A stretch of DNA of 64,000 nt, from contig OX578155.1 of NCBI GenBank assembly GCA_951213105.1, positions 34,183,984 to 34,247,983 of the forward strand, given 5' to 3'. The position numbers were made by a program, and so were the translations under genes. Position 1 is the stretch's first letter. The number at the start of each line of letters is the position of its first letter. The DNA comes from Amaurobius ferox (Eukaryota; Arthropoda; Arachnida; Araneae; Amaurobiidae). Below the pieces are notes generated by a model. It was not told the origin of the DNA, made no database searches, and worked only from the letters and a program-made list of their open reading frames with translations. Positions 17,191-58,981 of this stretch are shown here, in pieces.

Positions 17191-17249
17191 CAAGTAGAAG
17201 AGAAATGAGAGTTGAAGCCCCGCAGGCGGAGCTGCGGAGCGCATTCCAA

Positions 17250-17408
17250 TGTGAGGACGTCATCGGAGGATGACGTCACGTTATCTTATCAGATGACGTC
17301 ATCGGCTTATCTTATCAGATGACGTCATCTGATAAGCTTATCTTATCGGATGCGTCATTGGTTTATCTTATCGGATGACTCACTCGATAAGATTATCGGC
17401 TGACGTCA
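17250..17408. promoter_or_regulatory. Cluster of TGACGTCA palindromes and TTATC motifs
   Basis: Four exact TGACGTCA sites lie at 17271, 17294, 17320 and 17401, with near matches at ~17255 and ~17350. TTATCTTATC motifs alternate with them. TGACGTCA is the cAMP-response element bound by CREB/ATF proteins, and TTATC is a GATA site in reverse. The alternation is itself a short tandem repeat, so the cluster may be a by-product of repeat expansion rather than a selected enhancer. No promoter-proximal gene is evident. Confidence 0.5.
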
Positions 17409-17523
17409 TGTACTTGACACAGACAGTGAGGTTGAAGAAGACCTTGGCGGCCATCTAGGAAATTTTGGTGGCGCCCTCTATGGACAGGTTGGAGAACTGT
17501 GTTGGCTAAAAGGAAAGAATTAT

Positions 17524-17595
17524 TTCTGGACTGAGCTGGATTCGAACTGGGGACCCCTTGCACCGTAGGAGAGTGCTTTAACCAGTAGACACTTT
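17524..17595 (-). repeat. tRNA-derived sequence
   Basis: The minus strand reads GTCTACTGGTTAAAGCACTC (A-box-like), then ~25 nt, then GGTCCCCAGTTCGAATCCAG, whose GTTCGAATCC is a near-perfect B box. Acceptor and anticodon stems pair poorly, so a tRNA pseudogene or SINE head is more likely than a functional tRNA. Confidence 0.5.
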
Positions 17596-17616
17596 GAGAC
17601 TTGCAGTAAATGCTGA

Positions 17617-18205
17617 ATGAATGATATCTTCCCTGCGAAAGGAGTTGGGTACTTGGAATATTTTCTGAACTTCTACGAGGGGATGGTGCGAATGAATTAA
17701 GATTTTAATTCATTTTTAATAAATGAATAAAATATATTATGAAAAAAAAATGGAATATAGTCATAATGGAGTTTTAATAAGAGGATTATTTTTTTTAAAT
17801 AATTTAGTAATTATTGTTTTTATGAAATGGTTTAGAAAGCGTTTGAAGACATTTACGAAATTTTAGACGGCGGTGATGGCGCCCTCTATTGGCACTTGAA
17901 TGAAATAATGAATGATATCTTCCCTGCGAAAGGAGCTGGGTACTTAGAATATTTTCCAATCTTCTATGAAGGGATGGTGCGAATGAATTAAGGTTTTAAT
18001 TAATTTTTAATAAATAAATAAAATGTATTATGAAAAAATATGGAATGTAGTCATAATTGAATTTTAATAGGTGGATTATTTTTGTAATAATTGGAACGTG
18101 GGTAATTAATTTTTTTTATGGAATGGTTTGGAAAGTACTTGAAGACATTTACGAAAGTTTAGACGGCGGTGATGGCGCCATCTATTGGCACTTGAATGAA
18201 ATACA
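17617..18205 (+). repeat. Tandem duplication of ~295 bp
   Basis: The block from ATGAATGATATCTTCCCTGC to GATGGCGCCCTCTATTGGCA occurs twice (offset 291-296 bp) with ~90% identity by eye. A third, partial 'ggtggcgccctctatgg' lies at ~17470. No coding potential is clear. Confidence 0.85.
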
Positions 18206-18622
18206 TGCGACGAATTTTAATAGAATTAATTTCGAGAGAGGTTTTTGTGTTCTTTTAATTCGATAGTCGGACGATGACTGAATAATTTTAGCTTCACGCT
18301 CATACATGTTTTAATGAACGAAGATATTTTTTTTTACGTTGGCCGTTCATCAGAATTTTAAGAACGGGGTGTATGTTATTGAATTTTATTAATTTTAATG
18401 AAATGATTTTTGGGGTATTTTTGAATGAAGGAATGGGGGATTTCTACCACTCCATAGTGAACTAGCATATCGCATGTTTTAAATTTTACCATAAGATGCG
18501 AACAAGATTTGACCTTTTTAGAAGAGGTGTGTGTGCGCGTATGCCAGCCAAGATAATTAATTCTTTTAATGATTAGTAGGGGAGTCTGTGTTAAAACTGA
18601 CATGTTTTAAAAGCATGCGAAA
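18206..18622. other. Gene-free flank of the 16.3-kb element
   Basis: I see nothing recognisable. The sequence does not match the right flank of the element. Confidence 0.6.
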
Positions 18623-19432
18623 TTTTAGGAATAGGTTATAATACTCGCTGAACACGTTTCGACATTTTTTTTTTAATTTTACTGGGAATATTGTCAGATT
18701 TTTTATAATGATATTCATAAAAATGTTATGAAACGCAAAACTTTAACTATTTTAAATCATGCTGAATGTCTATTTTCACGTACCATGTGTGATTTGAATG
18801 CTAGGTTATACTACTTACTGAACATGACACGACACTTTTCAGAATGATTGTGTGTGCCACGCGATTTTTTATGACAAGTATCAGAACTTGCTGAATCCGT
18901 TTCGACTGTTTCTATCTACAAAAAAAATGGCTGTATTGATTTCTTTTCAAATATATGGGAAATTCAAGACTTTGCTATATTTAAGGACGTAGTTAAAATG
19001 AATAGGTGTACTGAATTATCAGTGAATGGAATAATTGGGAGATATTTTTAAAATGCAAAGTACTGAAAGCTTCACAAGCTAATGTTCTGCACAGATGTGA
19101 CTTGCATATGTATTGTGACATGGATGTTCTTACCAATGGCTTCTAAAAATGGAATCCAGATTATTTTGAAGAGTATACTGGGTTATTTTAAAGTATCCTC
19201 TAAAATGTTATGTATTAGAAAATAGCAAGATCCATTTCTATGTAGAAATAGTACATGCATGTCATACATTAAAAAAGAAATGAGTGTATGCCAATTCTAG
19301 TTTAGAAAATAGCCTTTATTTGAAAATCGTACGATCCATTTCTACAAAGAAAGGATATGATCGATTTTCAAATTAAAAAAAAATGATACATGCATGTTAT
19401 ACATTAGAAGAAAAAGTGTTAGTAAAAGTGGG
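18623..19432 (+). repeat. Left terminal inverted repeat of the 16.3-kb element
   Basis: It begins TTTTAGGAATAGGTTATAAT and runs to about GTAAAAGTGGGG. The reverse complement is found at 34120-34942 with scattered mismatches and small indels. Similarity stops abruptly at both limits. Confidence 0.9.
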
Positions 19433-19990
19433 GTATTCATCGAATTCTGCGATGAATTTCCTGACAATATATTAAAAGTTCTATGCATGATTTTTATACA
19501 TCCTTTTAAAATTTTACATGCTACTAAATACAAATTGATTATTTTTTTACGATGGCCCATAAATGTTCCGATGAAGGAGTTTAATTATCCTAAGTTAATA
19601 ATGAGTTTAACGAATTTTAATTACTTCGAATTTTAATTAATTTAAATTCGCATTCAATTTTTTTTTTCGCAAACTCTTTTTTTTTTTTCCAAAAACCTTC
19701 TCCAAAGAATGGATTACCTAAAGTATTTTTAATAACATACTGACTTATTTTAAAAGTCCAATTTAAGAGAAAATATCCATTTTAAAGCAAATTATTTTAA
19801 AAGTTCTCATTAGAAAATTCCAGATTTTTAGATATACACTCATTCAGCCCTTGACATTGAAACAGCAATCTAGTATCTCTCACTATCACACGAGATGGTG
19901 AATCACCATATACTGACTGGATGATTGTGCCTTGTAATTTGTTGAACTGAGAAGAGGGGAGGGGGGAGGGGGATTAGATAAGAAAAAGGG
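19433..19990. other. Unassigned internal region
   Basis: An 80-codon frame overlaps the TIR (19394-19636), but it shows no recognisable motif. The remainder is A/T and G-rich tract sequence (GGGGAGGGGGGAGGGGG at ~19955) just upstream of the TATA box. Confidence 0.5.
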
Positions 19991-19997
19991 TATAAAA
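19991..19997 (+). promoter_or_regulatory. TATA box of the small spliced gene
   Basis: TATAAAA stands ~20 bp upstream of the retrotransposon's left target duplication (20012-20024). Right of the insertion, the leader resumes at 25360 and the first ATG is at 25439. Without the insertion, the TATA box would lie ~110 bp from that ATG, which fits a short 5' leader. The insertion therefore separates promoter from coding sequence. Inferred from position only. Confidence 0.5.
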
Positions 19998-20011
19998 TGT
20001 GTGTGAGACTG

Positions 20012-20024
20012 AACATTTTTATCT
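20012..20024 (+). repeat. Target-site duplication, left copy (retrotransposon 1)
   Basis: AACATTTTTATCT is repeated exactly at 25347-25359. Confidence 0.95.
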
Positions 20025-20282
20025 TAAGCTGCGTAAATTGTAACTCGGGGCTCTCTCTCGTACTTTAGTATTGCTCCTGCTTTTACCAGTTGGTGATCTT
20101 CTTGCTTCCGCTTGGGCGTGTTATATCTAGTTTCGATAGAGCACGTCGGGCAAAGCAATTCTACAGCTTGTTGTGTACGGGCGATTCGCCATTTTGGATT
20201 TTGTGCTTTCCATTTTGGAGTGCCACGTGTGTTGTTACCACGTGGTAGTGCTATTTTTTTGGAACTTCTCCACCCTGACGAT

Positions 20283-22352
20283 ATGGATTTGGAACGAGGC
20301 GACGTGGCAGCTACTCGCGAACTTGCTGGTGAGCTGGACGAGGAAGAATTCGGGCCTCTCAAGGGTGCCTTGATGAATTACTGCGAAACTCTACCTGATG
20401 ATGGACTGATGACTGGACTGAAGGAAGAAATCAAGACCGCCGTCAACTTCTGCACCCTGGCAGTCTACGTGATGACTCTTCACATCAGGGAGCTGCTGAT
20501 GAACGGACTACTGGGACAGGAAGAGGATCAAGTCTCCAAGATGCTAGGTTCGTTACTTTCTGTGAACTCTTTTTTGTTTGCCCGGAAATTGGATAGGTTT
20601 ATTGATTGTGATATTTATGAGATTTCTAAATGTGAGGGATGTAATTCTAGTGTTCAAATCAAAAGTAAAATGATAGAGCAAGGCTTAATTAAGGATATTA
20701 AAGATGAAGATAAACTTAAGACGGTTGAAAATCCAAATAAAAAAAGAAAGATGGAGGGGCAATCCACTAAGGATGCTCCTACTAAAAGCCAGATTGTAGA
20801 AGAAAACTTAAATGTCCATGATAACATGGACTGTAATGAAATAGCTGATAATGTTGTAAATGTAACTGACAATGATTATGTTAAAACTAAGACTTACGCT
20901 GAGATTGCCGCGCAACCAGTAGTGTTTAAAAGTGCACCTAAACCTAAAACGGTCGAAAATAGTGACAGGCTAACAACAGTTGAAGTTGAGAAAAAAGACC
21001 CAAAAGCTGAATGTTTTTTCATAAAGTTCAATGATAATTACAAGGTTCTCCTTAAAAAACTAAATGATATCTCAGGAAATAAAGTATCTGGCAAGCTCAC
21101 AGGAGACATGCTAAAATTGATTCCAAATGACGCTGACACCTACAGGGTTGTACAGCGCCATTTAAGTAGTGAGAAAATCCCCTTCCACAGCTTAAACCTA
21201 AAGACGGAGAGGCCAAAAAAGGTAGTTCTGAAGGGGCTACCAACAAATTATAACATGGAGGAAATAAAAATCACTTTAACATCCGAAGGATTAGATGTAG
21301 TCCGGGTTTCTCAACTGAGAAACACTAAAACGAGATTACCCCTGCCGATCTTCTTAGTCAGCCTTAGGCCTACGGCAGACTGGCAGAGGGTCTACAGACT
21401 AACAAGATTAGGTTACTTGGCTGTGAAGGTAGAGGCCTTCAGAGCACGGGGCTTCAAAATCTGCTACCGGTGCCAACAGTTCAATCACTCCTCGGAGAAC
21501 TGCAGTATGCCACCTAAGTGCCTTAAGTGTGCTGAAGAACACTTCACACGGGACTGCCAGAGACCTAGGTCTGAGAAGGCTACGTGTGCAAATTGCAATG
21601 GAGACCACCCAGCGAACTTCAGGCAATGCCCGAAGAACCCCTGGAACAGAGGAAAGGCACCGGGGTATGCCCCCCCTCCCCAAAATCAGATACCCCCTTG
21701 GAGGCAAAAGGCCCTCGGATTAAACTCCCAGGCACCCCCTCAGGGCTCCTCGCACACTGTGCCACAGCAAAACAGATACCAATCTTCAGCACCCACCAGA
21801 TCGGTGCAAGAGCAGGCCCCCAAACCTTCGTCTTCCAGAGAATTGACTCCGGAAGAAGTAAAACTGGCTACTATAGCCATTATAAAGAGAAAGGAAGCCG
21901 AAAAAGCCAGACAGGCGGAACTAGAAGCTAAAATTGTAAATCAATATGCTAAATCAAAAGAAGAAATCAAAACACGTGAAGCCAAAACTAAACGAGTCAG
22001 AGAGGAAGAGCTCGCGCAAACCCAGCTGTTAGAAAAAACGGTTGAAAAAAGGCAAAAAACTACTGAGGTCCAAAAGGATACTCACGAAAATGACCAAACC
22101 GCGGTTGAGGCTGAGGATATGGAAGCTGAGACTGAACCTGTTGGTAAAACCAATGATGAAAAGATGGATGAAATCCTCAACCTCATCAGAGGGTTTATCA
22201 CCATGTTCGACCTAGATGCAATAAAACACCTGTTGATGCAGTTCGCAGAGCTAATACAAAAAAAGAGTGATCCAATGCAAATGGTCTTTGAGGCTTTTAA
22301 ATTAATCGCGGACTTTAAAAATAACAGTGAGAATCAAACCCGTCATGGCTAG
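20283..22352 (+). CDS. Retrotransposon 1 ORF1, nucleic-acid-binding Gag-like protein
   Basis: A 689-aa protein that would coat the element's RNA and chaperone its transfer. I chose the ATG at 20283 (MDLERGD); the frame stays open further upstream, but without another ATG. The N-terminal third is acidic and low in complexity. The central region holds the conserved RPKKVVLKGLP segment. Three zinc knuckles follow: CYRCQQFNHSSENC (CX2CX4HX4C), CLKCAEEHFTRDC and CANCNGDHPANFRQC. Next come a Pro/Gln-rich stretch, a charged helical region and a C-terminal ~60-aa helix. It overlaps ORF2 by 8 nt (ATGGCTAG), suggesting reinitiation-type coupling. The frame is intact. Confidence 0.92.
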   Translation: MDLERGDVAATRELAGELDEEEFGPLKGALMNYCETLPDDGLMTGLKEEIKTAVNFCTLAVYVMTLHIRELLMNGLLGQEEDQVSKMLGSLLSVNSFLFARKLDRFIDCDIYEISKCEGCNSSVQIKSKMIEQGLIKDIKDEDKLKTVENPNKKRKMEGQSTKDAPTKSQIVEENLNVHDNMDCNEIADNVVNVTDNDYVKTKTYAEIAAQPVVFKSAPKPKTVENSDRLTTVEVEKKDPKAECFFIKFNDNYKVLLKKLNDISGNKVSGKLTGDMLKLIPNDADTYRVVQRHLSSEKIPFHSLNLKTERPKKVVLKGLPTNYNMEEIKITLTSEGLDVVRVSQLRNTKTRLPLPIFLVSLRPTADWQRVYRLTRLGYLAVKVEAFRARGFKICYRCQQFNHSSENCSMPPKCLKCAEEHFTRDCQRPRSEKATCANCNGDHPANFRQCPKNPWNRGKAPGYAPPPQNQIPPWRQKALGLNSQAPPQGSSHTVPQQNRYQSSAPTRSVQEQAPKPSSSRELTPEEVKLATIAIIKRKEAEKARQAELEAKIVNQYAKSKEEIKTREAKTKRVREEELAQTQLLEKTVEKRQKTTEVQKDTHENDQTAVEAEDMEAETEPVGKTNDEKMDEILNLIRGFITMFDLDAIKHLLMQFAELIQKKSDPMQMVFEAFKLIADFKNNSENQTRHG

Positions 22353-25022
22353 GTCCCAAAAAGAAAGCTTTAAAATAATATTTTGGAATGCGAACGGCAT
22401 ATCTCCAAGAATAAATGAACTTAGGAGCTACGTAAATGAAAATGATGTAGATGCCCTGTTAATTCAGGAAACTAAAGTTAGAGAAAATAAAAAACTAAAT
22501 ATAGCAAACTATATTGGCTATCACAACCTAAGCTCAAATACAACTGCTAGAAACCCCCATGGAGGAACAGCAATATATATCAAAAGAAATATTCCCCACG
22601 AGGAAATAAACAACATAAATCTTCAAGGAGTAGAAAATACTAGCATAAAAATTAAAATAAATAATGTAAACCCATTTATCCTAACTTCAATATATGTCAA
22701 AAACATGAGTGGTATAAATGTAGCTGCGCAGCTGGAACTGCTTTTCTCGCGATATCCAAACACAATACTCGCGGGCGACTTCAATGCACACCACCGAGCG
22801 TGGGGCAGCAGGAGAGCCAACATACGCGGTACACAGATACACAGATTACTGAACACAACAAACACCAACATCATTGCACCGTCGAGACCAACCTGCTTCT
22901 CAGGTGCCAACGGCTCATTCATAGACTTTGTCCTAACGAGAAACATAGAATACGCTCACACTATCGATACCCTAGATGAATTCGACTAGGATCATTTACC
23001 GGTATTGGTGACATTTGATCTGAACACTCCCCTTCCAGCCTCTCTGGGACAAGAGAGGGTGAACTGGAACGTTTTCAAAAGAGCACTTTTTGAGCCGCAC
23101 TTGGCAGTACCCAACATTATGAGCACGGCGGATATTGACTCTGCCACACACACACTCACAACAGAAATCAAGAGAGCTATTGCCTCTGCCACAACACATC
23201 GTGAGTCACCAAAAATGCCCACACTTTCCCACCATGTCAAACAATTAGTTAGGCAAAGGAACAGAATGCGTAAGACATGGCAGGCTAATAGAGACCCTAC
23301 CCTCAAAAGGGAGCTTAACAGACTCACGTGGAAAGTCAGGGATAAAATTGTCGCAGAAAAGCAGCAACAGTATAAAGAGTTAATTGAATCCCTTAGCTCG
23401 GAAGACGTATCGCTCTGGCAATTCGCTAAAAGACTCAGAAAACCTCAAATTAAACTCCCGCCACTAATAGATGGCGTTAAAATCGCGTACTCAGACGAAG
23501 AAAAAGCAGAGGCGCTTGCTAGGCATTACGAAAAGCAATTTGAACCAAACCACGATCTAATGTGTCAGGACACCCTAAGAATGGTTAGGCAAACTCTAAA
23601 CAACTTCAGGAACTCCCCGGTCACGGCTGAGATTAACCCAGCCACCCCGCAAGAGATAATTGATATCATCAAGAACCGTAAAAGCCCAGGGCACGACAAA
23701 ATTAGGAATATTGCGGTCAAAAACCTACCCTTAAATATAATATTTTACTTGACCACCCTAATAAACAAAATACTAAAACTAAATTATTTCCCCAAAGAAT
23801 GGAAGGAAGCGATAATTATAGCGATCCATAAGCCTGGTGAGGATGCCACAATTCCAGCCAACTATAGACTAATCAGCTTACTACCGACACTTAGTAAAAT
23901 TACTGAGAAAATAATTCTTATAGACTGAACACACACCTTAGTGAGAATGATATTATCATTCCGGAGCAGTTTGGATTTCGGCCAAAACACTCCACCACTC
24001 ATCAATTGCTGAGAGTGGTAGAGTACATATCTTCTGGACTTAATAGTAAGACACCCACAGCTGCGATTTTTCTTGACATACAAAAAGCATTTGATAAAGT
24101 GTGGCACTGTGGATTAGCATACAAATTGATCACTCTAAAAGTCCCTGACGCACTTGTCAAACTTTTAATCTCATACCTTAATAACAGACACTTCCAAGTT
24201 AGAGTAAAAGATAACATGTCTACACCCAAGCTCATTAAAAGTAGTGTACCGCAAGGATCCATCCTGGGCCCGACACTCTTTAACATATATCTAAATGACA
24301 TCCCCAGGACCCTAGACACGGAGCTGGCACTCTATGCAGACGACAGTGCGATACTTGCAAAACATCCTTACGTCTCAGTAATGCACAGACAGCTACAACA
24401 ACACTTAGACATACTCCAAACATGGCTGGAAAAATGGCGAATAAAATTAAACCCCAATAAATGTCATTGGATTTATTTCTCTAGAAAACGTAAACCTCCG
24501 CCGCCTCTGTACATAAACAACCATACCCTAAAAGCGGAAAAATCTACTAAATACCTAGGTGTAACGATAGATTCCCACCTAACCTGGAAACAGCACGTAA
24601 CGAACTTAATCAAAAAAGCGTATATGGCCACAGGAGCCTTATACCCAATGATAGGAAACGGAAATCTAAGTTATCAAAATAAACTCCTAATTTATAAATC
24701 GGTCATCCGCCCGGGAATGCTATATGCAGCACCCGTATGGGGATATGCCTGTAAAACTACTATAGACTTACTAGAGACAAAACAAAACAAAACCCTAAGG
24801 ATTATAAGGAAAGCTCCTAGATACTTAAGAAACTCGGTAATTAGGAAAGACTTCAAAATAAAAACTGTTAGTGCCCAAATTAAAAAGCTAGCGCTTAAAT
24901 TCTATAAAAATCTGCCATCTGTTCCAAATGAACTACTATTCAATCTGCATGACTATGATCATCGCAAAGCCAAATCACGTAAGAGACCCCGCGCGGTACT
25001 TAATATTGAAAATCGGAATTAG
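22345..25022 (+). pseudogene. Retrotransposon 1 ORF2, endonuclease and reverse transcriptase
   Basis: This encodes the target-primed reverse-transcription machinery. The N-terminal APE-type endonuclease shows FWNANGI, LIQETK, GDFNAHH (about 22770) and DHLP. The reverse transcriptase shows the SPGHD region, PQGSILGP and the catalytic YADD (24332-24343). The C-terminal 'TLRIIRKAPRYLRN' segment is typical of the group. Two lesions break it: an in-frame TAG at 22987-22989 just before the last endonuclease motif, and a one-base deletion near 23915-23925 between the fingers and palm. Three open segments (22345-22989, 23005-23928, 24006-25022) together cover the whole protein, so decay is recent. 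Confidence 0.92.
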
Positions 25023-25346
25023 GTAAGTCCCAACTTAAATAGTTGATATTAAATTAAAACTCGATCAATGTTTTCTAAAAAATATTGTTAAACCTTAAAC
25101 TGCCAAATTGATAGGAAATCCTTAGAACTGCATCAACTCCCCAAAATTACTCAAACTCTAAATGTGCAACAAACTGCCACACTAGGAGCTAAGTCAAATA
25201 ATAAAAACAGTAAATCAAAAACCTCGAACCTCCAACTATTGGCAAATGAAATAATGTCACAGTAGGAAGATAAGAACCACACCTAGAGATTGGAGATTAA
25301 AGGCGCTTCGCGCCTGGTGCTCTTTTCTGGACGAAACCCACATCTT
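25023..25346 (+). other. 3' untranslated region of retrotransposon 1
   Basis: A/C-rich sequence ending with a GC-rich inverted element (GGCGCTTCGCGCC, ~25301-25313) before the terminal CCCACATCTT. A comparable 'ggtgctc' end is seen in retrotransposon 2, so the hairpin may help the reverse transcriptase recognise its RNA. Confidence 0.6.
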
Positions 25347-25359
25347 AACATTTTTATCT
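25347..25359 (+). repeat. Target-site duplication, right copy (retrotransposon 1)
   Basis: An exact second copy of AACATTTTTATCT. Confidence 0.95.
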
Positions 25360-25438
25360 AGTTTTTACTTAGATTTTCTGACTTTCTATAAGTTCTTTCT
25401 TCAAGTTCTATTATAGCAAATCCATTCCCAACGCTACA

Positions 25439-25661
25439 ATGTCTCTATCCAATATATATAAGGTATGTATATATATTTTTTAATTTATTTCGTACTTATT
25501 GTGTGATTGTAAGTTTATGCATATCGTTTGATTCTATATTTAAATAAATGCATTTTATATATTCCCAGTTAAATTTTGGATTATCTGAAGAAGAATTCCA
25601 ACTCATCTGTAGTGCCGAATCTAACGAGACCCTTACAAACCATGAAACGATCGCAAATCAG
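25439..25661 (+). CDS. Small spliced gene of the 16.3-kb element, first two exons (hypothetical)
   Basis: Exon 1 (25439-25462) starts at ATG and ends AAG before GTATGT. Exon 2 (25569-25661) follows an ATATATTCCCAG acceptor and ends CAG before GTTAGT. Both junctions are phase 0, and together they give 39 codons with a polar second exon (LNFGLSEEEFQLICSAESNE and on). A third exon is not certain; an acceptor-like TCTAATATAG near 25806 opens a frame of ~55 codons that looks poor. I do not recognise the protein. The TATA box at 19991 and the leader right of the retrotransposon fit it. Read-through of exon 2 gives the longer frame ending at 25784, which I do not favour. Confidence 0.45.
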
Positions 25662-25861
25662 GTTAGTCTATTACTTTATCTTCTTTTAAATGATGCATAT
25701 TTTTCACATTATTATTTTTTTTTAATGTTTATGAGGAGTTGTAGAAATAGATTTATATTAAAAAAATTATATTTAAATAATTAAAATGTAATATTTCTAA
25801 TATAGCATAAAATCACGAGTTTAAATTTCCTAACTAGGCTTTATTTAAACTTTAATTTATC

Positions 25862-26519
25862 GTGTTCAGAAATAAAACTTAAACGGAAATATCATCGTAG
25901 TCTAATACTTCTTTTTTTTTTTTTTGTATATGAGATTAGACAGCAGTTGAGTTTTTCCTTTTTTGCTTTATAGTGCATACTTATGAGTTTAGAAGTAAAT
26001 AAAGTTTAAGAATGTATACCACACGGAGCAGTTTGAACTTTATCGGAATAGTTCCACCGCTGATTTTATTTTGAATGAATCGCATATGTGTTAGTACTAG
26101 GGTGAGTGTCGTTTCTATATGAATAATGGTCTATATACGTTTTTGGTTTCAGAAATTTATTTTTTTAAAGTAATAAAACTTATGAATTTATAACACACGG
26201 ACTCCATCGAAATGGACTCATTGTTGAGTGCATATATTTTTTAAAAAAATTTGTTAAGAGTATACATAGGTAAAATTTCTCGAAACTCTAATTTGTCGTA
26301 TTTTAATTTAGAAATTAAACTTAACATTTTAATCTGGCGTTTTTATTTTATTTATTTGATGATTTGATATTTTTTAAATGAATTTGATTTTTGAAATTTA
26401 TTTTAAAACGGAAAGCATAAAACTAAATAATAAAATCATGTTTAGAGAAAAATAATATTTAATAAGATATGCAATAATACAACCATTTTTACAAAACATA
26501 ATAATAAGATTGAAGTAAC
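25862..26519. other. Unassigned region within the element
   Basis: AT-rich with poly-T runs. It might hold further exons of the small plus-strand gene or of the minus-strand gene that ends in a splice donor at 26520, but none is convincing. Confidence 0.5.
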
Positions 26520-27110
26520 TTACATATGGAAATGCTCATTCATAGCAGAAAAATGCTTCTCTACAGTAAATTGTTCAAAATATTGTGGTATGAGTAATGA
26601 AATATTGTTCTGATTTGTTTCACAAAACTCTCGTGCAATTTCTTGAGTGTTTATCAGGAGTAGTTCATGATCGAGCAGTTGATAATCCACAAATTGCATA
26701 TGACAGGGTAGAGTGCAACACTTATGTTTTAAATCGGTACACCCATGACTTGTGCATATATCGCCTTGATACACTTTATACAGCTCTGCACATAAATTTT
26801 TAAATATACTCTGTATTAAAAATATTTGTATTTGTTCTGGAGAGCATGTAGGAATTGTTTCGACGCACTTTCGTTGCTTCATGATAGAATCGGGTAATAT
26901 TTTTAAAAGTAATTCATGCAGCACACACTTGGTTACACTCTGAGCAATATTTTTAAGCATACAAAAATGCTCTTCGCTTAATGTAATCAACTTCTTTTTG
27001 AATTGAAGTGTACTAACACAGGGTGGTAATTGTTGCAAATATAGATTGCGTTGGTATACACATACTAGCAATTCGTTATGGATCACAAAAGATGCATTTT
27101 CATGATCCAT
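26520..27110 (-). CDS. Unknown 196-aa protein, possibly continuing past an intron
   Basis: The ATG (MDHENASF) lies 22 nt downstream of the AlkB stop on the same strand. The protein is leucine-rich and mainly helical in look. Its middle has a Cys/His cluster (CTSHGC, HKCCTLPCH) that could bind a metal. I do not recognise a family. The last codons read FHM then TAA, but the TAA belongs to a perfect donor, AT|GTAAGT, so a transcript may splice here and go on. Being packed against AlkB inside the element suggests it is an element gene, not a host gene. It might instead be the second half of an AlkB transcript joined by splicing. Confidence 0.5.
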   Translation of the reverse strand: MDHENASFVIHNELLVCVYQRNLYLQQLPPCVSTLQFKKKLITLSEEHFCMLKNIAQSVTKCVLHELLLKILPDSIMKQRKCVETIPTCSPEQIQIFLIQSIFKNLCAELYKVYQGDICTSHGCTDLKHKCCTLPCHMQFVDYQLLDHELLLINTQEIAREFCETNQNNISLLIPQYFEQFTVEKHFSAMNEHFHM

Positions 27111-27131
27111 ATTGATGTTTGATATTTTTTT

Positions 27132-28070
27132 TTAAAATGCACTCCAAGCAGCAGGTGTGAGTGTCGCGCCATTGGTGGTAGGCACGAGAACATTAGAAGT
27201 ATTTGTTTTGTAAACACGAAGGTGCACTTTAACATTTCCACGAAAATGTTGCACTGTAACATGCAGATCGCCTCCCAAATTGGAGCGGAACTTTTCGGAC
27301 GAAGGTGACTCGGTCGAAACCGATTCGGTGTGAGTTGTAGCATAGTTGAGGGCTGATGATATGATGTCACACTGGGTTTCTGTAGGATTTATAGATGGAG
27401 TATGCATATAGTTCCAATCGATTTCCGGTATAGGCGAAAGCGGAGCAGGCGGTACATGCATTGGAAATTGACACTTGCGTTTCAAAGTGGTCTTTTTAGG
27501 CAAAATTTGTCTGAATGTGAGACTTATTCTAGATTCAGTGACTTCGGGTTCTGCTGAAATTCCATGAGAATAGAATTTATTAGTCGGTGCATGCATTACA
27601 TACAACGAACCATGTTGTAATGGGAGAGTTAAAGGAGATTGTCCTTTTCTTTCGAAAATGATGGATCTCGTAGTCCCGAAGCTGAGAGCTGCTATGGGTG
27701 TTTTGGAGCACAAGGAACTTTCATTATCCTTGTGTTGTCCTATTTTAGAATGTCCATCAGGATAGTGGTTTAGAAGCACAAAATTGTAGTTAAATCCAGT
27801 GTGTTCCTCCACTCGAGCTTTAATGTCCTTTAACAGAGGTGTCCATTCCACGGCGGGAACACTACATCCAGAAAATTCGTAGGATAGTCCGGCATCTCCA
27901 AATGCATATACTTTTCGATTAGGCTGGTATGTGCGACCCTGCACGATGACTTCAGATTGTTGAAAGGGTAGACATTTTAATTCTTGTAAAATTGCATCGG
28001 CCACATTCACAGAATAAAATTCGCGAACATATTCAATATGCAGCTTTTCACGTTTAAACAACACAGACAT
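27132..28070 (-). CDS. AlkB-like Fe(II)/2-oxoglutarate dioxygenase
   Basis: The enzyme family removes alkyl groups from DNA or RNA bases by oxidation. This 312-aa protein has the whole catalytic set: an N-x-Y-x-x-G stretch at residues 101-106, the iron ligands His113-x-Asp115 and His169, and the 2-oxoglutarate-binding R-x5-R at Arg181 and Arg187 (RISLTFR). Residues 1-95 match the nucleotide-recognition lid region of ALKBH2/3-type proteins, including a YxxxFGxxGLxYxFSG-like segment. The last ~120 residues are Ser/Thr/Pro-rich and probably disordered. It starts ~400 bp from the divergent polymerase gene. The frame is fully intact although the polymerase is broken. It may protect element DNA from alkylation or act on RNA; which substrate cannot be told here. 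Confidence 0.88.
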   Translation of the reverse strand: MSVLFKREKLHIEYVREFYSVNVADAILQELKCLPFQQSEVIVQGRTYQPNRKVYAFGDAGLSYEFSGCSVPAVEWTPLLKDIKARVEEHTGFNYNFVLLNHYPDGHSKIGQHKDNESSLCSKTPIAALSFGTTRSIIFERKGQSPLTLPLQHGSLYVMHAPTNKFYSHGISAEPEVTESRISLTFRQILPKKTTLKRKCQFPMHVPPAPLSPIPEIDWNYMHTPSINPTETQCDIISSALNYATTHTESVSTESPSSEKFRSNLGGDLHVTVQHFRGNVKVHLRVYKTNTSNVLVPTTNGATLTPAAWSAF

Positions 28071-28074
28071 TTTA

Positions 28075-28468
28075 AGAAATAAGGAATAGCAACCTTCTAC
28101 TAGAACAATTGTAGAGCGAATGAGCTCTTATCTGTGCCTGATATGTCTTATCAGTAAATCAGATGATGCAATAAATCACGTGATATGTTTTATCCAATCA
28201 CGTATCGTCCTTATCGCACAGGCGCCATTTCTTTAGCGAATCAGGACACGGTTCGTGGTATGTCACGCGACACTTTTTAACCAATCAGGTGGCGTTTCGT
28301 GCTATGTCACGTGACATTTTTTAACCAATCAGGTGTTGTTTCGAATATCACGTGATATCGCGTGATTTTTTAAGTACCATTGCGCAGTGGGTAGAACCCA
28401 CTTTTGCTCGAGATTCGTGTTTAGAAAGACGTGTTTTTCAGCTTCTCCTAATTACGATACTTATTACA
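28075..28468. promoter_or_regulatory. Divergent promoter between AlkB and DNA polymerase genes
   Basis: The spacer holds three CACGTG sites (28177, 28308, 28349) and three CCAAT boxes (28194, 28281, 28325), the last two inside a repeated AACCAATCAGGTG unit. Two copies of 'gt.ctatgtcacg.gacattttt' repeat ~45 bp apart. CACGTG is bound by bHLH-zip factors such as Max/Myc and USF; CCAAT is bound by NF-Y. There is no clear TATA on either side. Its position and symmetry suggest one shared two-way promoter. Confidence 0.6.
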
Positions 28469-28761
28469 ATGGCAAACGAATTTCCTCAACATTTTAATCG
28501 AGTCATTTCAGAAGTGAGTTAAAGATGTTTCTGACATTAAGAAAATAATTAAATATTTTTAAAATTCAGGATACTTTATTTTGAATATAGTTTTGTAAAA
28601 TGTTCTAACATATGACTTTCATTTTAAGGAAATGTCGTCAGTCGATATGGAACCCAGTGTGGAACCTCAGATCCCATTAGCTGCAAAATCCAATGTGTTA
28701 GCCGTTGCAGAGTCCACTGCAACACCCCGTGGGGAGGCCGGGCTGAGTGGCACTCATATAA
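28469..28761 (+). other. Candidate 5' exons of the polymerase gene
   Basis: Candidate exon 1 (28469-28513) is ATG plus 14 codons (MANEFPQHF...) before GTGAGT. Candidate exon 2 (28629-28761) follows CATTTTAAG in phase 0 and continues in frame (MSSVDMEPSVEPQIP) to a donor-like A|GTAATT. The strong acceptor GTCTGTTTTTCAG at 28958-28970 opens the zinc-finger exon in phase 0, yet the donor of exon 2 leaves phase 1. Either the copy carries an indel, another donor is used, or translation starts at the zinc-finger ATG. Confidence 0.45.
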
Positions 28762-30423
28762 GTAATTTTTTTTTATTCCATATTTTGGTGGAGATAGGGA
28801 AGAACCGGCTGTTTTTGGGAGTGTAGGATGGCTTTTAAATGTATTTATATTTCAGAATATCTAAAAATAAACAGCTGATTAAATTTCTACGTAATTTATT
28901 TTTAAATTTAATTTAAAGTGTTAGGTGAGGGAGACATAGACACTAATGTTGGACTTTGTCTGTTTTTCAGATGTGTCCCACCTGCCATAAAGTGTTTACG
29001 TTAAAGCACAATTTGCAACGTCATGTGAAAACACACACCGAAGAAAAATCTTTCACGTGTGATGTCTGCCAAAAGACATTTTTAAGAAAAGGAGATTTAA
29101 ACAGACATAGCAAAACACATACCAATTATCGTATTTTCCAATGTGACATTTGCGAAAAGACTTTCACGAGGGAAGACAATTTAAACGCACATAGAAAAAT
29201 TCACTTACAGATGAAGACCTATCCCTGTACCCTTTGCGAGGCTACGTTCACTAGAAAGGGCGATTTGACTCAACATGTACGTACAATGCATAAGACTCCT
29301 CCCCCTGTTAGCATGAAGCGCAAGAATGACGATGTGGGATCCGCTTCTAGGAAGCGCGTAAAGCGTAGCAATAAGGCTTTGGGGGTGTTCCTAACACATA
29401 CGTTGGAACCCTCCGAAGAAAATTCGCAAGATCTGCTTCTTAGTTTAGAAGAACTGCGGCCCCACATTGAAAATCTTCTGGCAGAATTACAAACTCGCCA
29501 AATCAAATGGTATGTTATTCTAAATGTCAGGATGTCTCGTCTAAATTCTGATGGGGAGGAGGAGTTCGCAACACCTCATTTTCGCACAAACTGCGTCACC
29601 ACCCTTCAAGACTATACTGTTGAGGAGCATGTTAGGAAAGGAAGTGATAAAGTTGTACAATCTGTAGAGAAATTTCATCAGCTTGGATCTGCATGGACTT
29701 TGGATCGGGTGCTCAGTTTAGAAATGTACATTGGAACGTATCGACCCTTCCGTCCATCGAGTTACATTCCACTACCTCCCAAAATAGTGGCCAAGAAGGC
29801 GGTCCTCAACATTCAAAATGAGGACCAAAAGTGCATCATATGGTGTGTGCTTGCACACTGGAAGAATATAGATCCCTCCACTAAACCCTACCGTGTGAGC
29901 CATTACATCCCATTTGAAGGGGAGGTAGATATGGGAAATGTGGAGTGCCCAGTAGCGATTTGCAAGATACCAACGCTCGAGAAGTTGAACGAATGCCGCA
30001 TTAATGTGTTCGGATATGAAAAGGGAGAAGTTTTTCCTCTCCAAATATCCGAGCGGGAGGACTCCGACGTAATTAACCTACTTTTAATCAGCGACGGGGT
30101 CCAACAACATTATTGCCTCATTCGCAATTTCTCTCGTCTTCTCGCTGATGTAACATCACACAATGGGGAAAGCTACATTTGCTTCCGGTGCCTCCACAGA
30201 TACCATCGTGAAGACCTTCTACAGAAGCACATTCCATTTTGTAGAGAGCATGCTCCTCAGCGGGTCACGATGCCAAGTCCCGAAAAAAGCATCCTCAAGT
30301 TTAGCATGGAACACTACCAGCACCCCGTGCTCTTTGTAATTTATGCAGATTTCGAGGCGCTCCTGGTTAAGATGAGTAGCAGCGAACCCTCTCGTAAGAA
30401 CTCCTTTACGGAAAAGATGGCTC

Positions 30424-30436
30424 TTCACGAACCCTG
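30424..30436 (+). repeat. Target-site duplication, left copy (SINE in polymerase)
   Basis: TTCACGAACCCTG is repeated at 30824-30836. Confidence 0.95.
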
Positions 30437-30823
30437 TTGTTGTTGTTGAGACCCAGACCGTCCGACCTACCAGAAAGGTGTAAGGTAACTGTATGGACGG
30501 CCGGGAAGTGCCACCCAATTTAGACCGGAACCCAGTGGGGGAGGCATCCACAGGGACCGTACCCTCCTTCCCCTACCACCAACCTCTCGGAAGGACTTAC
30601 GGACCCACATGTTTAACGTGATCGTACTCCGCATGAACACGGCGGCATTTGTGGTAGCATGCAAATCTAGCGCGTAAACCACGGGGATACCGCACCCGAG
30701 ATGGCCAACAGCACGCGGTGTTCCGAGGTGGTCACCCACCAAGTACTAACCGCGCCCGATGCTGCTTGACTTCGGTGATCTAACGAGAACCGGTGTTTTC
30801 AGCACGGTACGGCCGTTGGCAAT
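30437..30823 (-). mobile_element. 5S-rRNA-derived SINE, full-length copy
   Basis: On the minus strand it begins with a 117-nt 5S-like head, continues with a ~250-nt body and ends in a (CAA)n tail. Perfect 13-bp target duplications flank it. A SINE with a 5S head belongs to the SINE3 type, transcribed by RNA polymerase III from the internal 5S promoter and moved by a LINE whose 3' end it copies. The body's CTTTCTGGTAGGTCGGACGG end is present in all four copies in this window. It interrupts the polymerase frame. Confidence 0.93.
30704..30820 (-). repeat. 5S rRNA-like head of the SINE
   Basis: Read on minus, it starts GCCAACGGCCGTACC and ends GTGCTGTTGGC, with AAGTCAAGCAGCATCGGGCG and GGTTAGTACTTGG in between. 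This is the eukaryotic 5S order with a few substitutions and a one-base loss after TACTTGG. The internal A box, intermediate element and C box are recognisable. It is not a 5S gene, because it continues without a terminator into the SINE body. Confidence 0.92.
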
Positions 30824-30836
30824 TTCACGAACCCTG
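30824..30836 (+). repeat. Target-site duplication, right copy (SINE in polymerase)
   Basis: An exact second copy of TTCACGAACCCTG. Confidence 0.95.
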
Positions 30837-33224
30837 TGGATATGCTTACGTAGTGATCGATCCACAGGGCAAGTGCCTCCGAGATCCCAAAATCTATCGA
30901 GGCACAGAAGCAGTCATCAAATTCATCGAAGATATCTTGCGAGAGAAGGACGAACTCATTCCCAAAATCAAAGCCAACAGGCCAATGAAGTTAACCAGGA
31001 GTGAGGCCGCTTCATTCGAACAAGCCACAGAATGTTATCTGTGTAAACGGCCATTCAAGCACGACGGTGTAAGGTATGTAGGAAAATGCAGAGACCACGA
31101 TCACATCAGTGGTGTATATCGAGGAGCACTGCATGTGATGTGTAATTTAAGATTTCGTCTCCCTACTACCATACCGGTAGTGTTTCATAATTTGAAGAAT
31201 TATGACGGCCACCACCTGATGTCGGGACTTGGTAAATTTAAAGAATACGAAATTGTCCCCATCGCAGTAAACATGGAGAAATACATATCATTTTCCTTAC
31301 AGAAGAAAACCGAGGGTGTGAGGCTGCATTTTATTGACAGTCTTCAATTTTTAAACACCTCCTTGCAGAAATTAGTAGATAATTTACCGAAAGGACAATT
31401 TAATATAACAGCTGCGGCTATGCCGAACCACACCGATTTGCTGCTGCGCAAGGGGGTATACCCATACGAGTACATGGACTCGTATGGAAAATTTGAAGAC
31501 CGAGTGCTGCCTCCACCTTCGTCATTTTTCAGCACCTTAACAGAAGAGAACGTATGTGAGGAGGATTACAAACACGCTCAGAATGTATGGAGGACATTCA
31601 ATTTGGAAACCATGGGTGATTATCATGATTTATACGTGAAAACGGATGTCCTTCTGCTGGCCGACGTATTTGAACATTTTAGGAAATTGTGTATGAGGTA
31701 CTACGGTCTGGATTGTGCTCACCTCATGACTGCACCGGGGTTGGCGTGGCAGGCCTCCCTGAAGAGGGTGGATCAGCCCTTGGATCTCCTGACTGACATC
31801 GACATGCATCTTTTCGTTGAAAGGGGGATTCGAGGGGGAATATCGGTCATCACTAAACGGTGGGCACGGGCAAACAACCCATACATGGCCGAGTATACTC
31901 ATACAGAGCCCACCCGGTATCTAATGTATTTAGATGCGAATAATTTGTACGGGTGGGCAATGTCTCAGCCCCTACCTTATGGGAATTTTGAGTGGGTTTC
32001 ACCTACCATCGCCAGTGAAGAGTGGATTTTGGCTATCCCCAGCGGTGGAACAGATGGGTATATATTAGAAGTGGATTTGTACTACCCATCTGAACTGCAC
32101 GACCTTCACAACGATTACCCACTTGCCCCGGAAACGTTGAAGATCAGAGAAGAAATGATTTCACCATACACGGTAGAAGTTATGAAAACAACTAAAATGC
32201 CTCGGTTCCAGAGTCAAGAAAAGTTAACTCCAAATTTATTTAATAAGAAGAATTATATTGTCCATCATGAAAATTTAAAATAATATCTGGAACTGGGGCT
32301 TAAATTAACAAATGTGCATAAAATACTCAAATTCAAGCAACGAGCCTGGTTGAAGCCCTACGTTGACTTCAACACGGAGCATCGTAAAGGGGCCCAATCA
32401 GGTTTCGAGAAAGATTTTTTTAAACTGATGAACAATGCCGTGTATGGTAAATGTATGGAAAATCTGAGGAACCGGGTCAAGATTGATCTAGTGAAGGACG
32501 AAAAACGCGGGGAGAAGCTTCTGGCGGCACCCACATTTAAATCTTTCAAAATATTCAATGAAGACTTGGTAGGGGTCGAGCGATTGTACAATAACATCGT
32601 ACTCAATAGACCCATATACGTCGGTTTTGCCATTCTCGGGCTCAGTAAACTCCTCATGTACAGATTCCATTACGACTATATCAAGCAGAAATATCAAAAT
32701 AAAGCAACACTTTTATTCACCGACACCGACTCTCTAACATATGAGGTCGAGTGTCGGGATTTTTATAAAGATATGAAAGAGAGCGCCCACCTCTTCGACA
32801 CATCGTATTATCCTACAAGTCATTCCGCCCACAATGTGTCAAACAAGAAGAGGATTGGATGTTTTAAAGACGAATTAAACGGAGCACCTGGACTTGAGTT
32901 TGTGGGACTCAGGTCTAAAATGTATTCTCTCCTCTCTACAGTGGGGGAGAAGAAAACAGCAAAGGGTGTCTCCAAAACTACCGTAAAAAAGCACATCAAG
33001 CATGAAAATTATAGCAATCTACGACCACAAGATCCTTTCAACATTGCATAGGGAGCGAGTGTCATCGTTTGTATACACTGAAGCAAAGTAAATTGGCACT
33101 TTCTCCTTATGACGATAAAGGATATGTTTTGGAGGATGGTATACATACCTATGCCCATGGACACTGTAAAATTCCTAAACAATAGGTATGCCAACTCCAT
33201 TTCAAGAGTTTTACTTGTACACAG

Positions 33225-33720
33225 AAAAAGAACTTTCAAGATTTTTTCCTCGCAAGAAGATTTAAAGATTTTTCCATGTTTACTGCGAAAGACTATTTCA
33301 AGATTTTAAATACAAGATTTTTCCATGTTTACTGTGCAAGACCATTTCAAGATTTTAAATACAAGATTTTTCCATGTTTACTGTGCAAGACCATTTCAAG
33401 ATTTTAAATACAAGATTTTTAGATTTTTTACAAGATTTTTACATATTTATCAAGATTTTTTACATTTTTATCAAGATTTTTTACATTTTGAATACAAGAA
33501 TCTCATACAGTGTATTTTTCTGAATTGTGCTTCCCTCGTAACATCTTTCGAAGATTTTTTACATTTTGAGTTCAAGAGAAGATCCTTTTCAAGATTTTTT
33601 CATTATACTTCCCTCGCAAGAAGATTTGAAGATTTTTACATTTTAAACACAAGATTGTCATACAGTGCATTTTCAACATTTTCACTTTCCCGGTAAGAAG
33701 AATTGAAGAAATTTTACATC
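33225..33720 (+). repeat. Degenerate tandem repeat of CAAGATTTTT units
   Basis: Downstream of the polymerase, a 49-bp unit (AGATTTTAAATACAAGATTT and on) is repeated at 33301, 33350 and 33399. It then decays into shorter 'caagattttttacattt' units. Open frames here are repeat shadows. Confidence 0.85.
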
Positions 33721-34119
33721 TTTCGAATGAACTCTGTTCATATTTTAAGGGAAATAGGCCTGCCAATGTGAAATAATCTAATTTTGTCACTTTACATTTA
33801 AAATCATTAAATTTCTATCTTGTAACATTTTTTTTTTCATAACCTTGCAATTAAAAAAAATATTACAAGTATCTAAATTCACATTCATTTTTTTTTAAAT
33901 GTTTTAAAAGCATTAAAGTTTATTTATTTTTTATAAACTTCTATCTTACCATTCAATTACAAGTAACTTAACTTAAAATTCATAATTATTTTTAAATCCA
34001 TATTTAAGAAAATTATTTCACGTTGGTGGGGAACACTGCCCATAAAGAGTGAAACGACAGCTTGACCTTCCAGGTACTGTCGGAAACGCTCCCACTCTCT
34101 TCTTCTGCTACTAACATTT
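33721..34119. other. Unassigned spacer before the right TIR
   Basis: AT-rich with poly-T and poly-A tracts; I see no gene. Confidence 0.6.
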
Positions 34120-34942
34120 CCCACTTTTACTAACACTTTTTCTTCTAATGTATAACATGCATGTATCATTTTTTTTTTTTTTTAAATTTGAAAATCGATC
34201 ATATCCTTTCTTTGTAGAAATGGATCGTACGATTTTCGAATACATTATAGGCTATTTTCTAAACTAGAAATGGCACACACTCATTTCTTTTTTAATGTAT
34301 GATATGCATGTACTATTTCTACATAGAAATGGATCTTGCTATTTTCTAATACACAACATTTTAGAGGATACTTTAAAATAACCCAGTATACTCTTCAAAA
34401 TAATCTGGATTCCCTTTTTAGAAGACGTTGGTAAGAACATCCATGTCACAATACATATGCAAGTCACATCTGTGTACAACATTAGCTTGTGAAGCTTTCA
34501 GTACTTTGCATTTTAAAAATATCTCCCAATTATTCCATTCACTGATAATTCAGTACACCTATTCATTTTAACTACGTCCTTAAATATAGCAAAGTCTTGA
34601 ATTTCCCATATATTTGAAAAGAAATCAATGCAGCCATTTTTTTTTGTAGATAAAAACAGTCGAAACGGATTCAGCAGGTTCTGATACTTGTCATAAAAAA
34701 TCGCGTGGCGCACACAATCATTCTGAAAAGTGTCGTGTCATGTTCAGTAAGTAGTATAACCTAGCATTCAAGTCACACATGGTGCGTGAAAATAGACATT
34801 CAGTATGATTTAAAATAGTTAAAGTTTCGCGTTTCATAGCATTTTTATGAATATCATTAAAAAAAATCTGACAATATTCCCAGTAAAATTAAAAAAAAAA
34901 TGTCGAAACGTGTTCAGCGAGTATTATAACCTATTCCTAAAA
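34120..34942 (-). repeat. Right terminal inverted repeat of the 16.3-kb element
   Basis: The reverse complement of 18623-19432. It ends ACCTATTCCTAAAA, after which the two flanks share nothing. Confidence 0.9.
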
Positions 34943-35620
34943 GAGGGGGCACTCACTAAAATATTCAATTTGATGAACTAATGAAAAATGTCTCCTTTAT
35001 AGTGTGATAAAAGCTTGAAATTTAGTATACAGGCATACATTTGATAAAAAAAACCGAGATGAATACGGATTTTCAAAAATGTTTATTTAAGGGGGTGCTA
35101 CACAGAAAAACGTTTGAAAGGTGAAGTAATAGGAAAAACATGCTGTACGATAGAATAGAGACTTCAAATTTGGTGTACGAGTAGATAGTTTGAAAGGAAG
35201 AAAGTGTGCAATGACAGATTTCCAATATTTGCTACTTTAAGGGGTGCTGCACACCAATATATTCAATTGTCTGAATATATGAGACACGCTTCCTTTTAAA
35301 TGTGATAAAGGTGTGATATTTGGTATACGGGCCAATCTGATAAAAAACCCACGACGAACAAAGTTTTTCAAAAATGTTCATTTATGGGTGTGCTCTACAG
35401 AAAAATGTTTGAAATTGGAAATGATAAAATAGTTTGCTTTGGGACGAGATAGAAACTTGGTGTACGTGTAGATAGTTCGAAAGGAAGAAGTGCACAATTT
35501 AAGTTTTCCAATATTTTCTTCTTTACCCTCTAAAGATTTCTGCACACCAAAATAATCGATTCGCCAAATAAATGTGAAACACGAATTATTCAAAATTTCA
35601 CATTATTCAGGGGCTGCTTA
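34943..35620 (+). repeat. Tandem repeat, ~295-bp period, flanking the element
   Basis: Phrases such as 'gggtgctgcacaccaatatattca', 'gtgataaa..tgaaatttggtatac' and 'cagaaaaatgtttgaaa' recur at intervals near 295 bp (34943, ~35236, ~35530; also 35091 and 35385). Units are diverged. Nothing similar stands at the left flank of the element. Confidence 0.75.
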
Positions 35621-39400: not shown

Positions 39401-39447
39401 ATCTATCTCTAATGGCCCTGGTCTATCTCTAATGGCCGCCGCGAAAA

Positions 39448-39530
39448 CTAAAGTGTCTATAATGTATCTAGTGTGTTGACCCGCGGCACAAACTGGTTCT
39501 CGAGCGAGATGAAATCCGCGTGAGGGCGCT
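39448..39530 (+). repeat. Inverted repeat, left arm
   Basis: The 27 bp at 39448-39474 (CTAAAGTGTCTATAATGTAT and 7 more) are an exact reverse complement of 41488-41514. Weaker inverse similarity continues for ~60 bp outward (GCGCTACAA / AGCGCCCTC, AACTGGTTCTCG / GGAAACCAGTTT). Confidence 0.85.
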
Positions 39531-41410: not shown

Positions 41411-41417
41411 ACAGTTG

Positions 41418-41514: not shown

Positions 41515-41549
41515 CGAAAACGAAACTATTGAGAGTGACAGGTCTGTAT

Positions 41550-48062: not shown

Positions 48063-49130
<1,068 letters not shown>

Positions 49131-58900: not shown

Positions 58901-58981
58901 AGCATTTGGTGGGGGGGGGGGGGGGGATCATGATTGGCTATTGGGGCTCTGATTAAAATGGTGATCTACTAGTACTAATAT

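What the first reader, a model, noticed from the sequence alone, without database searches (positions are those of the whole stretch)
18623..34942. 16.3-kb inverted-repeat element pairing a virus-type DNA polymerase with an AlkB demethylase
Seen: ~0.8-kb inverted termini, a complete set of polymerase B motifs and an intact AlkB on the opposite strand, with no integrase, capsid, ATPase or protease. Known: protein-primed polymerase B plus long inverted termini marks Polintons, adintoviruses, bidnaviruses and linear plasmids. Inference: a reduced or undescribed lineage of polymerase-bearing elements in arthropods whose gene set includes base-repair chemistry.
Basis: partly seen in the sequence, partly recalled or inferred. 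Interest (0 to 1): 0.92.

Follow-up and report, generated by a model that had tools for sequence, protein, structure and literature searches.

The report
Split Polinton with AlkB polymerase segment
In what is probably a spider genome, a virus-like mobile element seems to be divided into separate pieces that share the same ends, one piece carrying a DNA polymerase and a DNA-repair gene and another the capsid and integrase genes, an unexpected layout for this kind of element.

Summary
The finding is real, but its boundaries and meaning change. The window holds a decayed copy of a Polinton-type element. Its left end is at 17193 (5'-AGTAG), not 18623; its right arm is cut off at 34942. A 5.3-kb LINE and a 0.39-kb 5S-rRNA-derived insert lie inside it. 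The AlkB belongs to an AlkB-PC4-DUF fusion (516 aa unbroken in another copy), divergent from a zinc-finger/EndoVII/PolB protein (1276 aa unbroken in two others). The pairing is a genuine family: 27 of 28 close PolB copies (this one included) have an AlkB within 22 kb; dN/dS is 0.09-0.29 in the copies compared. Other elements with the same long inverted repeats and ends carry a capsid protein, ATPase, protease-like ORF and chromodomain integrase but, as far as read, no polymerase. Among 40 scored copies each, no hexon or integrase lies within 100 kb of a PolB or AlkB, while 17 of 20 close hexons have an integrase within 2.6 kb. A third class shows only a PC4-DUF paralogue. Two integrase-less PolB/AlkB copies have perfect 6-bp target duplications. 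Best reading: a split (multipartite) Polinton complementing in trans. Rivals: deletion derivatives, or a PolB-AlkB satellite of Polintons.

The parts
17193..19432 (+). Left terminal inverted repeat; true terminus 5'-AGTAGAAGAG at 17193. The inner part 18623-19432 is the part still matched by the right arm
   Evidence: ends of independent copies converge on AGTAG; arms 92-97% complementary
34120..34942 (-). Right terminal inverted repeat, outer ~1.4 kb missing
   Evidence: other copies continue beyond this point; no outer-arm match found in 34900-45000
20025..25346 (+). Nested LINE (Jockey-like: label recalled): PRE_C2HC gag, endonuclease, reverse transcriptase; 13-bp duplication 20012-20024 / 25347-25359. 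Not part of the element
   Evidence: empty site in L019
26520..27110 (-). C-terminal part of the AlkB-PC4-DUF protein (same frame as the AlkB ORF, after an in-frame stop)
   Evidence: continuous 516-aa frame in L019; homologous to PC4-DUF proteins of the other classes
27132..28070 (-). AlkB (2OG-Fe(II) oxygenase, residues 14-187) plus start of PC4 domain (264-312)
   Evidence: Pfam E 1.9e-24 and 4.8e-7; ALKBH2 E 1.3e-32; dN/dS 0.21-0.28
28071..28955 (.). Intergenic region between the two divergent genes, with 44-bp tandem repeats at 28232-28343 (promoter region: inference)
28956..30437 (+). PolB protein, N-terminal piece: C2H2 zinc fingers and first exonuclease motif (motif name recalled)
30438..30823 (-). 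Nested 5S-rRNA-derived (SINE-like) insert; 5S match 30703-30820; 14-bp duplication 30424-30437 / 30824-30837. Not part of the element
   Evidence: empty site in L019
30838..32283 (+). PolB protein, middle piece: Endonuclease VII-like and DNA_pol_B_2 domains
   Evidence: (dN/dS 0.09-0.29)
32314..33051 (+). PolB protein, C-terminal piece (FTDTDS motif; motif meaning recalled)
   Evidence: phrog_1907 E 0.0013; no Pfam hit
33052..34110 (.). Tail between PolB and right TIR with 49-bp repeats; its last ~360 bp is shared with capsid-class elements

Best explanation
The window element is a decayed copy of the replication segment of a split Polinton. Segment A (this element; 13.1 kb in one copy on C9) encodes a presumably protein-primed DNA polymerase and an AlkB-PC4-DUF protein. 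Segment B (10.1 kb and, degraded, 6.3 kb in the two copies with both ends read) encodes a double jelly-roll capsid protein, a penton-like protein, a packaging-type ATPase, a protease-like protein, a chromodomain integrase and a PC4-DUF paralogue. Class C elements show only a PC4-DUF paralogue. All share long TIRs and AGTAG...CTACT ends, so A's polymerase can copy A, B and C from their ends, and B's integrase can insert all of them with 6-bp duplications. PC4 domains bind single-stranded DNA (recalled); I infer that PC4-DUF coats displaced strands during strand-displacement replication, and that the AlkB fused to it removes N1-methyladenine/N3-methylcytosine lesions there. Shown: gene content, shared termini, TSDs, segregation of the two gene sets among scored copies, selection. 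Inferred: protein priming, trans-complementation, packaging, AlkB substrate, roles of PC4-DUF.
For: Linkage (start to start): PolB (>=93%) has AlkB within 21.8 kb in 27 of 28; hexons at 95-100% have integrase within 2.6 kb in 17 of 20; hexon-PolB 0 of 40, hexon-AlkB 0 of 40, INT-PolB 0 of 40, INT-AlkB 0 of 40 within 40 kb, nearest 125 kb; with 20 further PolB places, still none for hexon or INT. Same ends: AGTAG termini in A, B and C copies; perfect 6-bp TSDs in two A copies (AACGAA, CTTATT), one B (TTTGTT), one C (GATGAT). TIRs as similar between classes (A-B mean 92.5%, A-C 92.2%) as within (A 94.1, B 91.4, C 92.7), with class B copies placed among C and A copies in the tree. Of 35 sampled elements: 8 A, 5 B, 21 C, 1 unresolved, none seen with A and B genes together. 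Selection: AlkB 0.21-0.28, PolB 0.09-0.29, ATPase 0.14, INT 0.34. Unbroken 516-aa and 1276-aa frames. Ten AlkB-PC4-DUF proteins in other public contigs and a class C homologue, P0150, 56%. Hexon relative P0026 folds like double jelly-roll capsid proteins, best E 6.2e-16.
Against: Only the 40 best candidates per search are scored (of 457-1362), and most of the 35 TIR elements were read in part, so a one-piece element may exist unseen. The 20 hexons of a 94% subgroup have no scored integrase nearby and the 12 PolB copies at 85% have no scored AlkB nearby; what those elements contain was not read, and they could be one-piece Polintons. 13 of the 40 scored AlkB copies have no scored PolB within 40 kb, the C8 class A copy among them. 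The divergent class A copy on C14 has PolB but no AlkB in the next ~5 kb. The C11 class B copy has no matching TSD. Class C dN/dS reaches 0.98 in one pair. No virion, transcript or extrachromosomal DNA was seen. Two of the ten AlkB relatives are altered at the iron-ligand stretch (P0148, P0153).
Confidence: 0.6

Rival explanations
1. Internal-deletion derivatives: A, B and C are all deleted forms of a one-piece Polinton that supplied the missing functions in trans and is extinct or was not sampled.
For: Deletion derivatives sharing TIRs are usual for DNA transposons (recalled). Class C and some AlkB copies are inverted duplications. The 94% hexon and 85% PolB subgroups have unknown partners.
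Against: A and B are each repeated with the same arrangement and with dN/dS of 0.34 or less among copies that, as far as read, already lack the other set; A and B each carry their own PC4-DUF paralogue, only ~28-33% identical over the aligned stretches, so they do not look like two halves of one recently cut genome.
Confidence: 0.2
2. PolB-AlkB element as a satellite: class A is its own lineage that replicates itself and borrows integrase (and perhaps capsids) from whatever Polinton is present, without being needed by it.
For: A has its own polymerase and at least 28 copies at >=93% identity; AlkB-PC4-DUF relatives occur in other datasets.
Against: Class B shows no polymerase in the three copies read end to end or nearly so (C11, C17, C7:115.9 Mb), so it needs one from somewhere; TIRs are not sorted by class.
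Confidence: 0.17

Closest known systems
Polintons/Mavericks (Polintoviricetes; Eupolintoviridae)
   Same: PolB; long TIRs; 6-bp TSDs (definition recalled); in class B retroviral-type integrase, packaging-type ATPase, DJR capsid protein (gene list in passages of PMC11071308; family name in passages of PMC12567637)
   Different: Polymerase and integrase/capsid genes lie on separate elements; AlkB-PC4-DUF
Adintoviruses (animal subgroup)
   Same: Integrase with C-terminal chromodomain, as described in passages of PMC11071296; virion gene set of the same kind
   Different: The passages seen describe PolB, hexon and integrase as genes of one virus (PMC11071296) and a 14.5-kb contig with PolB and integrase (PMC8363768)
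Bidnaviruses (BmBDV; Vesanto virus)
   Same: Polinton-derived PolB, TIRs, segmented genome with similar TIRs among segments (passages of PMC4061559 and PMC8363768)
   Different: Parvovirus-type capsid protein and SF3 helicase; no AlkB or PC4 in the passages seen
ALKBH2/ALKBH3 DNA demethylases
   Different: Fused to PC4 and a C-terminal domain, encoded by a mobile element

Membership tests
Polinton/Maverick | Family B (organellar/viral type) polymerase | tested here: met
   PF03175 E 2.8e-16 in class A
Polinton/Maverick | 6-bp target site duplication and AG...CT termini (definition recalled) | tested here: met
   4 of 5 elements with both ends read; the C11 class B copy has no duplication
Polinton/Maverick | Retroviral-type integrase in the element | tested here: not met
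   Class A: none in the window ORFs scanned, and 0 of 40 scored INT copies within 40 kb of a scored PolB. Class B: met (rve + Chromo)
Polinton/Maverick | DJR capsid protein and packaging ATPase in the same element as PolB | tested here: not met
   seen in class B only
Polinton/Maverick | Adenovirus-type cysteine protease | tested here: inconclusive
   Class B 158-aa ORF: Peptidase_C5 E 0.04, below cut-off
Adintovirus | PolB with N-terminal OTU-like domain (PMC11071296 passage) | tested here: inconclusive
   Pfam found zinc fingers and EndoVII, no OTU hit; no fold comparison made
Adintovirus | Integrase with C-terminal chromodomain | tested here: met
   Class B only: Chromo E 6.2e-9, residues 235-271 of 273
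Adintovirus | Hexon recognisable by BLASTp with reference adintovirus hexons | not tested
   No reference adintovirus hexon was compared; the DJR fold of a close relative was shown
Adintovirus | PolB, hexon and integrase in one genome | tested here: not met
   (scored copies only)
Bidnavirus | Parvovirus-type SF3 helicase and capsid | tested here: not met
   Not among the 20 ORFs scanned with Pfam, LINE ORFs included
Protein-primed replication | Terminal protein linked to 5' ends | not testable with these tools
   Inferred from polymerase type and TIRs
AlkB demethylase | AlkB fold with HxD...H iron ligands and C-terminal arginines (motif recalled) | tested here: met

The most novel reading that the evidence does not exclude
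A multipartite Polinton/adintovirus-type dsDNA virus-transposon: at least two obligately complementing segments (replication A; structure and integration B) and a third PC4-DUF segment (C) with shared, exchanged termini, all endogenised by one integrase, with an AlkB-PC4 fusion acting as a DNA-repairing single-strand-binding protein.
Probability: 0.5. Interest if true: 0.9.

Novelty: new variant of a known kind. Interest (0 to 1): 0.8.

Why it matters
Polintons are usually described as one-piece, self-sufficient virus-transposons, and bidnaviruses are thought to derive in part from them (PMC4061559 abstract). A split Polinton would offer a possible intermediate towards segmented genomes and make the question of how segmentation arises in integrating DNA viruses testable from genomic copies. 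The AlkB-PC4 fusion pairs direct DNA repair with a single-strand-binding domain, kept under selection in a replicating element.

Tried and rejected
Rejected or left open: (1) element bounds 18623-34942: the left end is 17193. (2) ORF 26520-27110 as a separate gene: it is the rest of the AlkB-PC4-DUF frame. (3) The LINE and 5S stretches as element genes: both are insertions with empty sites in L019. (4) A tandem PC4 repeat: the model of P0001 shows two units of four strands and a helix, but profile comparison gave no sequence support (hhalign probability 0.1). (5) AlkB in the divergent C14 element: not found in ~5 kb beyond its PolB. (6) Relatives in IMG/VR: PolB piece, 3 pattern matches, none confirmed; hexon, none. 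(7) PolB middle piece against PDB sequences: no match up to E 0.1. (8) The 50 rows shown in each Foldseek/VIA list for P0001 were taken up by the AlkB domain, so the fold of the C-terminal domain was not tested. (9) For dN/dS I used only copies that align without gaps over the whole stretch (4 of the class A copies for each gene); others were left out. (10) Papers: the listings of searches (15 of 146 listed; 0 papers with 3 of 5 terms) showed me no segmented Polinton/adintovirus and none with AlkB or PC4; the library lacks many subscription papers and PMC8502044, so absence from print is not shown.
Full report
What is there. The window lies at C24:34,183,984-34,247,983 of a 3.56-Gb animal assembly. 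The best-scoring named relatives of the associated capsid protein are from spiders (Stegodyphus, Araneus, Uloborus, Parasteatoda, Trichonephila, best 120 of 2488 listed), so the host is probably a spider (inference; no host name was given). The reported arms (18623-19432 and 34120-34942) are only the inner part of the inverted repeat. Copies elsewhere continue outward to a common terminus, AGTAGAAGAG..., at window 17193. The right arm stops at 34942. A LINE (20025-25346) and a 5S-rRNA-derived insert (30438-30823) are later insertions: copy L019 has the empty sites, and duplications of 13 and 14 bp can be read.

A family with the same termini but three gene sets. One search scored 40 TIR copies of 839 candidates; five pairs of them are two ends of one element, giving 35 elements, of which I read part or all. 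Eight carry PolB and/or AlkB (class A): the window, C7:32.6, C9:156.7, C15:14.6 and C19:58.1 Mb show both genes; C2:33.2 shows PolB and, an AlkB nearby; C8:80.7 shows AlkB, and no scored PolB nearby; C14 shows a divergent PolB and no AlkB in ~5 kb beyond it. Five carry class B genes. In L016 these are a PC4-DUF protein, an ATPase (Pox_A32, E 3.5e-7), a protease-like ORF (Peptidase_C5, E 0.04, inconclusive), a 435-aa capsid protein, a small basic ORF, a penton-like ORF (name recalled from resemblance; no Pfam hit), and an integrase with rve and chromodomains. The model of capsid relative P0026 (77% identical, mean pLDDT 76.1) matches double jelly-roll capsid proteins of iridovirus, PBCV-1, Sputnik and mavirus. 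Twenty-one show only a PC4-DUF paralogue or its surrounding DNA (class C; 16 by protein match, 5 by DNA alone). One (C1:135.47 Mb) is unresolved. None was seen with both A and B genes. The PC4-DUF proteins of the three classes are about 24-36% identical over most aligned stretches.

Integration. Elements with both ends read: A on C7 (15.0 kb with an insertion, TSD AACGAA) and C9 (13.1 kb, CTTATT); B on C17 (6.3 kb, TTTGTT) and C11 (10.1 kb, flanks GTGGAT / TACGCT, no duplication); C on C2 (9.1 kb, GATGAT). So class A, without an integrase, was inserted in the Polinton manner; the integrase must have come from elsewhere, most simply from class B (inference).

Genome-wide segregation. DNA searches of the host genome scored 40 copies each of hexon (482 candidates), PolB (1362), AlkB (457) and integrase (489). 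Distances are start to start. PolB at >=93% identity: 28, the window's included; 27 have an AlkB within 3.2-21.8 kb. The 12 PolB copies at 85% have none among the scored AlkB copies, and 13 of 40 AlkB copies have no scored PolB within 40 kb. Hexons at 95-100%: 20; 17 have an integrase within 2.0-2.6 kb; of the 20 at ~94%, none has; 22 of 40 integrases have no scored hexon within 40 kb. Hexon to PolB, hexon to AlkB, INT to PolB and INT to AlkB: 0 of 40 each within 40 kb, nearest 129, 125, 132 and 128 kb. A search with the divergent C14 PolB added 20 PolB places (60 in all); again none of its 40 places is within 40 kb of a scored hexon or INT, nearest 129 kb. The 40-copy limit means these are samples; the within-set pairs show that true linkage is seen where it exists.

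Selection and exchange. Nei-Gojobori dN/dS: AlkB 0.21-0.28 in 6 of 6 pairs of four copies (one with a stop), PolB middle piece 0.09-0.29 in 6 of 6 pairs of four copies; class B ATPase 0.14 (one of the two copies has a stop) and INT 0.34, one pair each; class C PC4-DUF 0.37-0.98 in 6 pairs. The A copies compared, as far as read, already lack class B genes, so selection acted on the A form itself. TIR identities between classes are close to those within classes, the arms of one copy are nearest neighbours in the 5 copies with both arms in the tree, and two of the three class B TIRs group with class C or unclassed copies at 0.98-0.99 support (24 TIRs): the ends are exchanged or kept uniform across classes. 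Even the divergent C14 class A (PolB pieces mostly 56-68% identical) has a TIR 91-92% identical over the ~230 bp read.

How it most likely works. Shown: shared ends, TSDs, segregation of genes, selection. Inferred: A's polymerase copies all classes from the ends; B's integrase and capsid genes serve all; PC4-DUF coats single strands; AlkB repairs methylated bases on them. Inverted duplications in class C and in three AlkB pairs (C14, C19, C23) look like products of strand switching on linear DNA (inference).

Against known systems. As a one-piece Polinton or adintovirus, class A fails (no integrase or capsid seen) and class B fails (no PolB seen). As a working system A plus B is a Polinton gene set. 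Segmentation with similar TIRs is known for bidnaviruses, including Vesanto virus with up to twelve segments (passages of PMC8363768 and PMC4061559); the passages I saw of PMC11071296 and PMC11071308 describe adintoviruses and Polintons as encoding PolB, integrase and capsid genes. The listings of searches showed me no segmented Polinton and no AlkB-bearing one; that is not proof of absence from print. I therefore call it a new variant of a known kind, with the multipartite reading at about even odds.

Noticed in passing
window 45238-49033: About 45 head-to-tail copies of an 84-bp unit encoding C2H2 zinc fingers that resemble those at the N terminus of the element's polymerase (28-42% identity).
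   Followed up: no
window 13388-17169: Arrays of ~149-bp satellite repeats (and a 148-bp array at 5231-5503); the left ends of the window element and of the C11 class B element both adjoin sequence of this kind.
   Followed up: partly
window 56001-60000: Strong GC skew (+0.34 and +0.46 in 2-kb blocks), above the other blocks of the window; cause unknown.
   Followed up: no
G000 C23:11173707-11176690, C14:87532824-87535085, C19:78601069-78609258: Pairs of near-identical AlkB copies back to back in inverted orientation, without a scored PolB within 40 kb, like snap-back duplications.
   Followed up: no
L017, L020, L023, L028: Class C elements hold inverted duplicates of all or part of their PC4-DUF gene, making large palindromes.
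   Followed up: partly
L026 3915-9991 and L027 3095-9171: Two stretches 100% identical over 6077 bases, about 21.6 kb apart on C2; recent duplication or assembly effect.
   Followed up: no
G000, 20 hexon copies (e.g. C22:57701894): A second hexon subgroup with almost identical scores (2008-2012 bits), suggesting a recent burst; no scored integrase of the class B lineage nearby.
   Followed up: partly
L041 (C14:110875800-110879800): A divergent class A polymerase inside a TIR that is 91-92% identical over the part read: ends and genes have different histories.
   Followed up: partly
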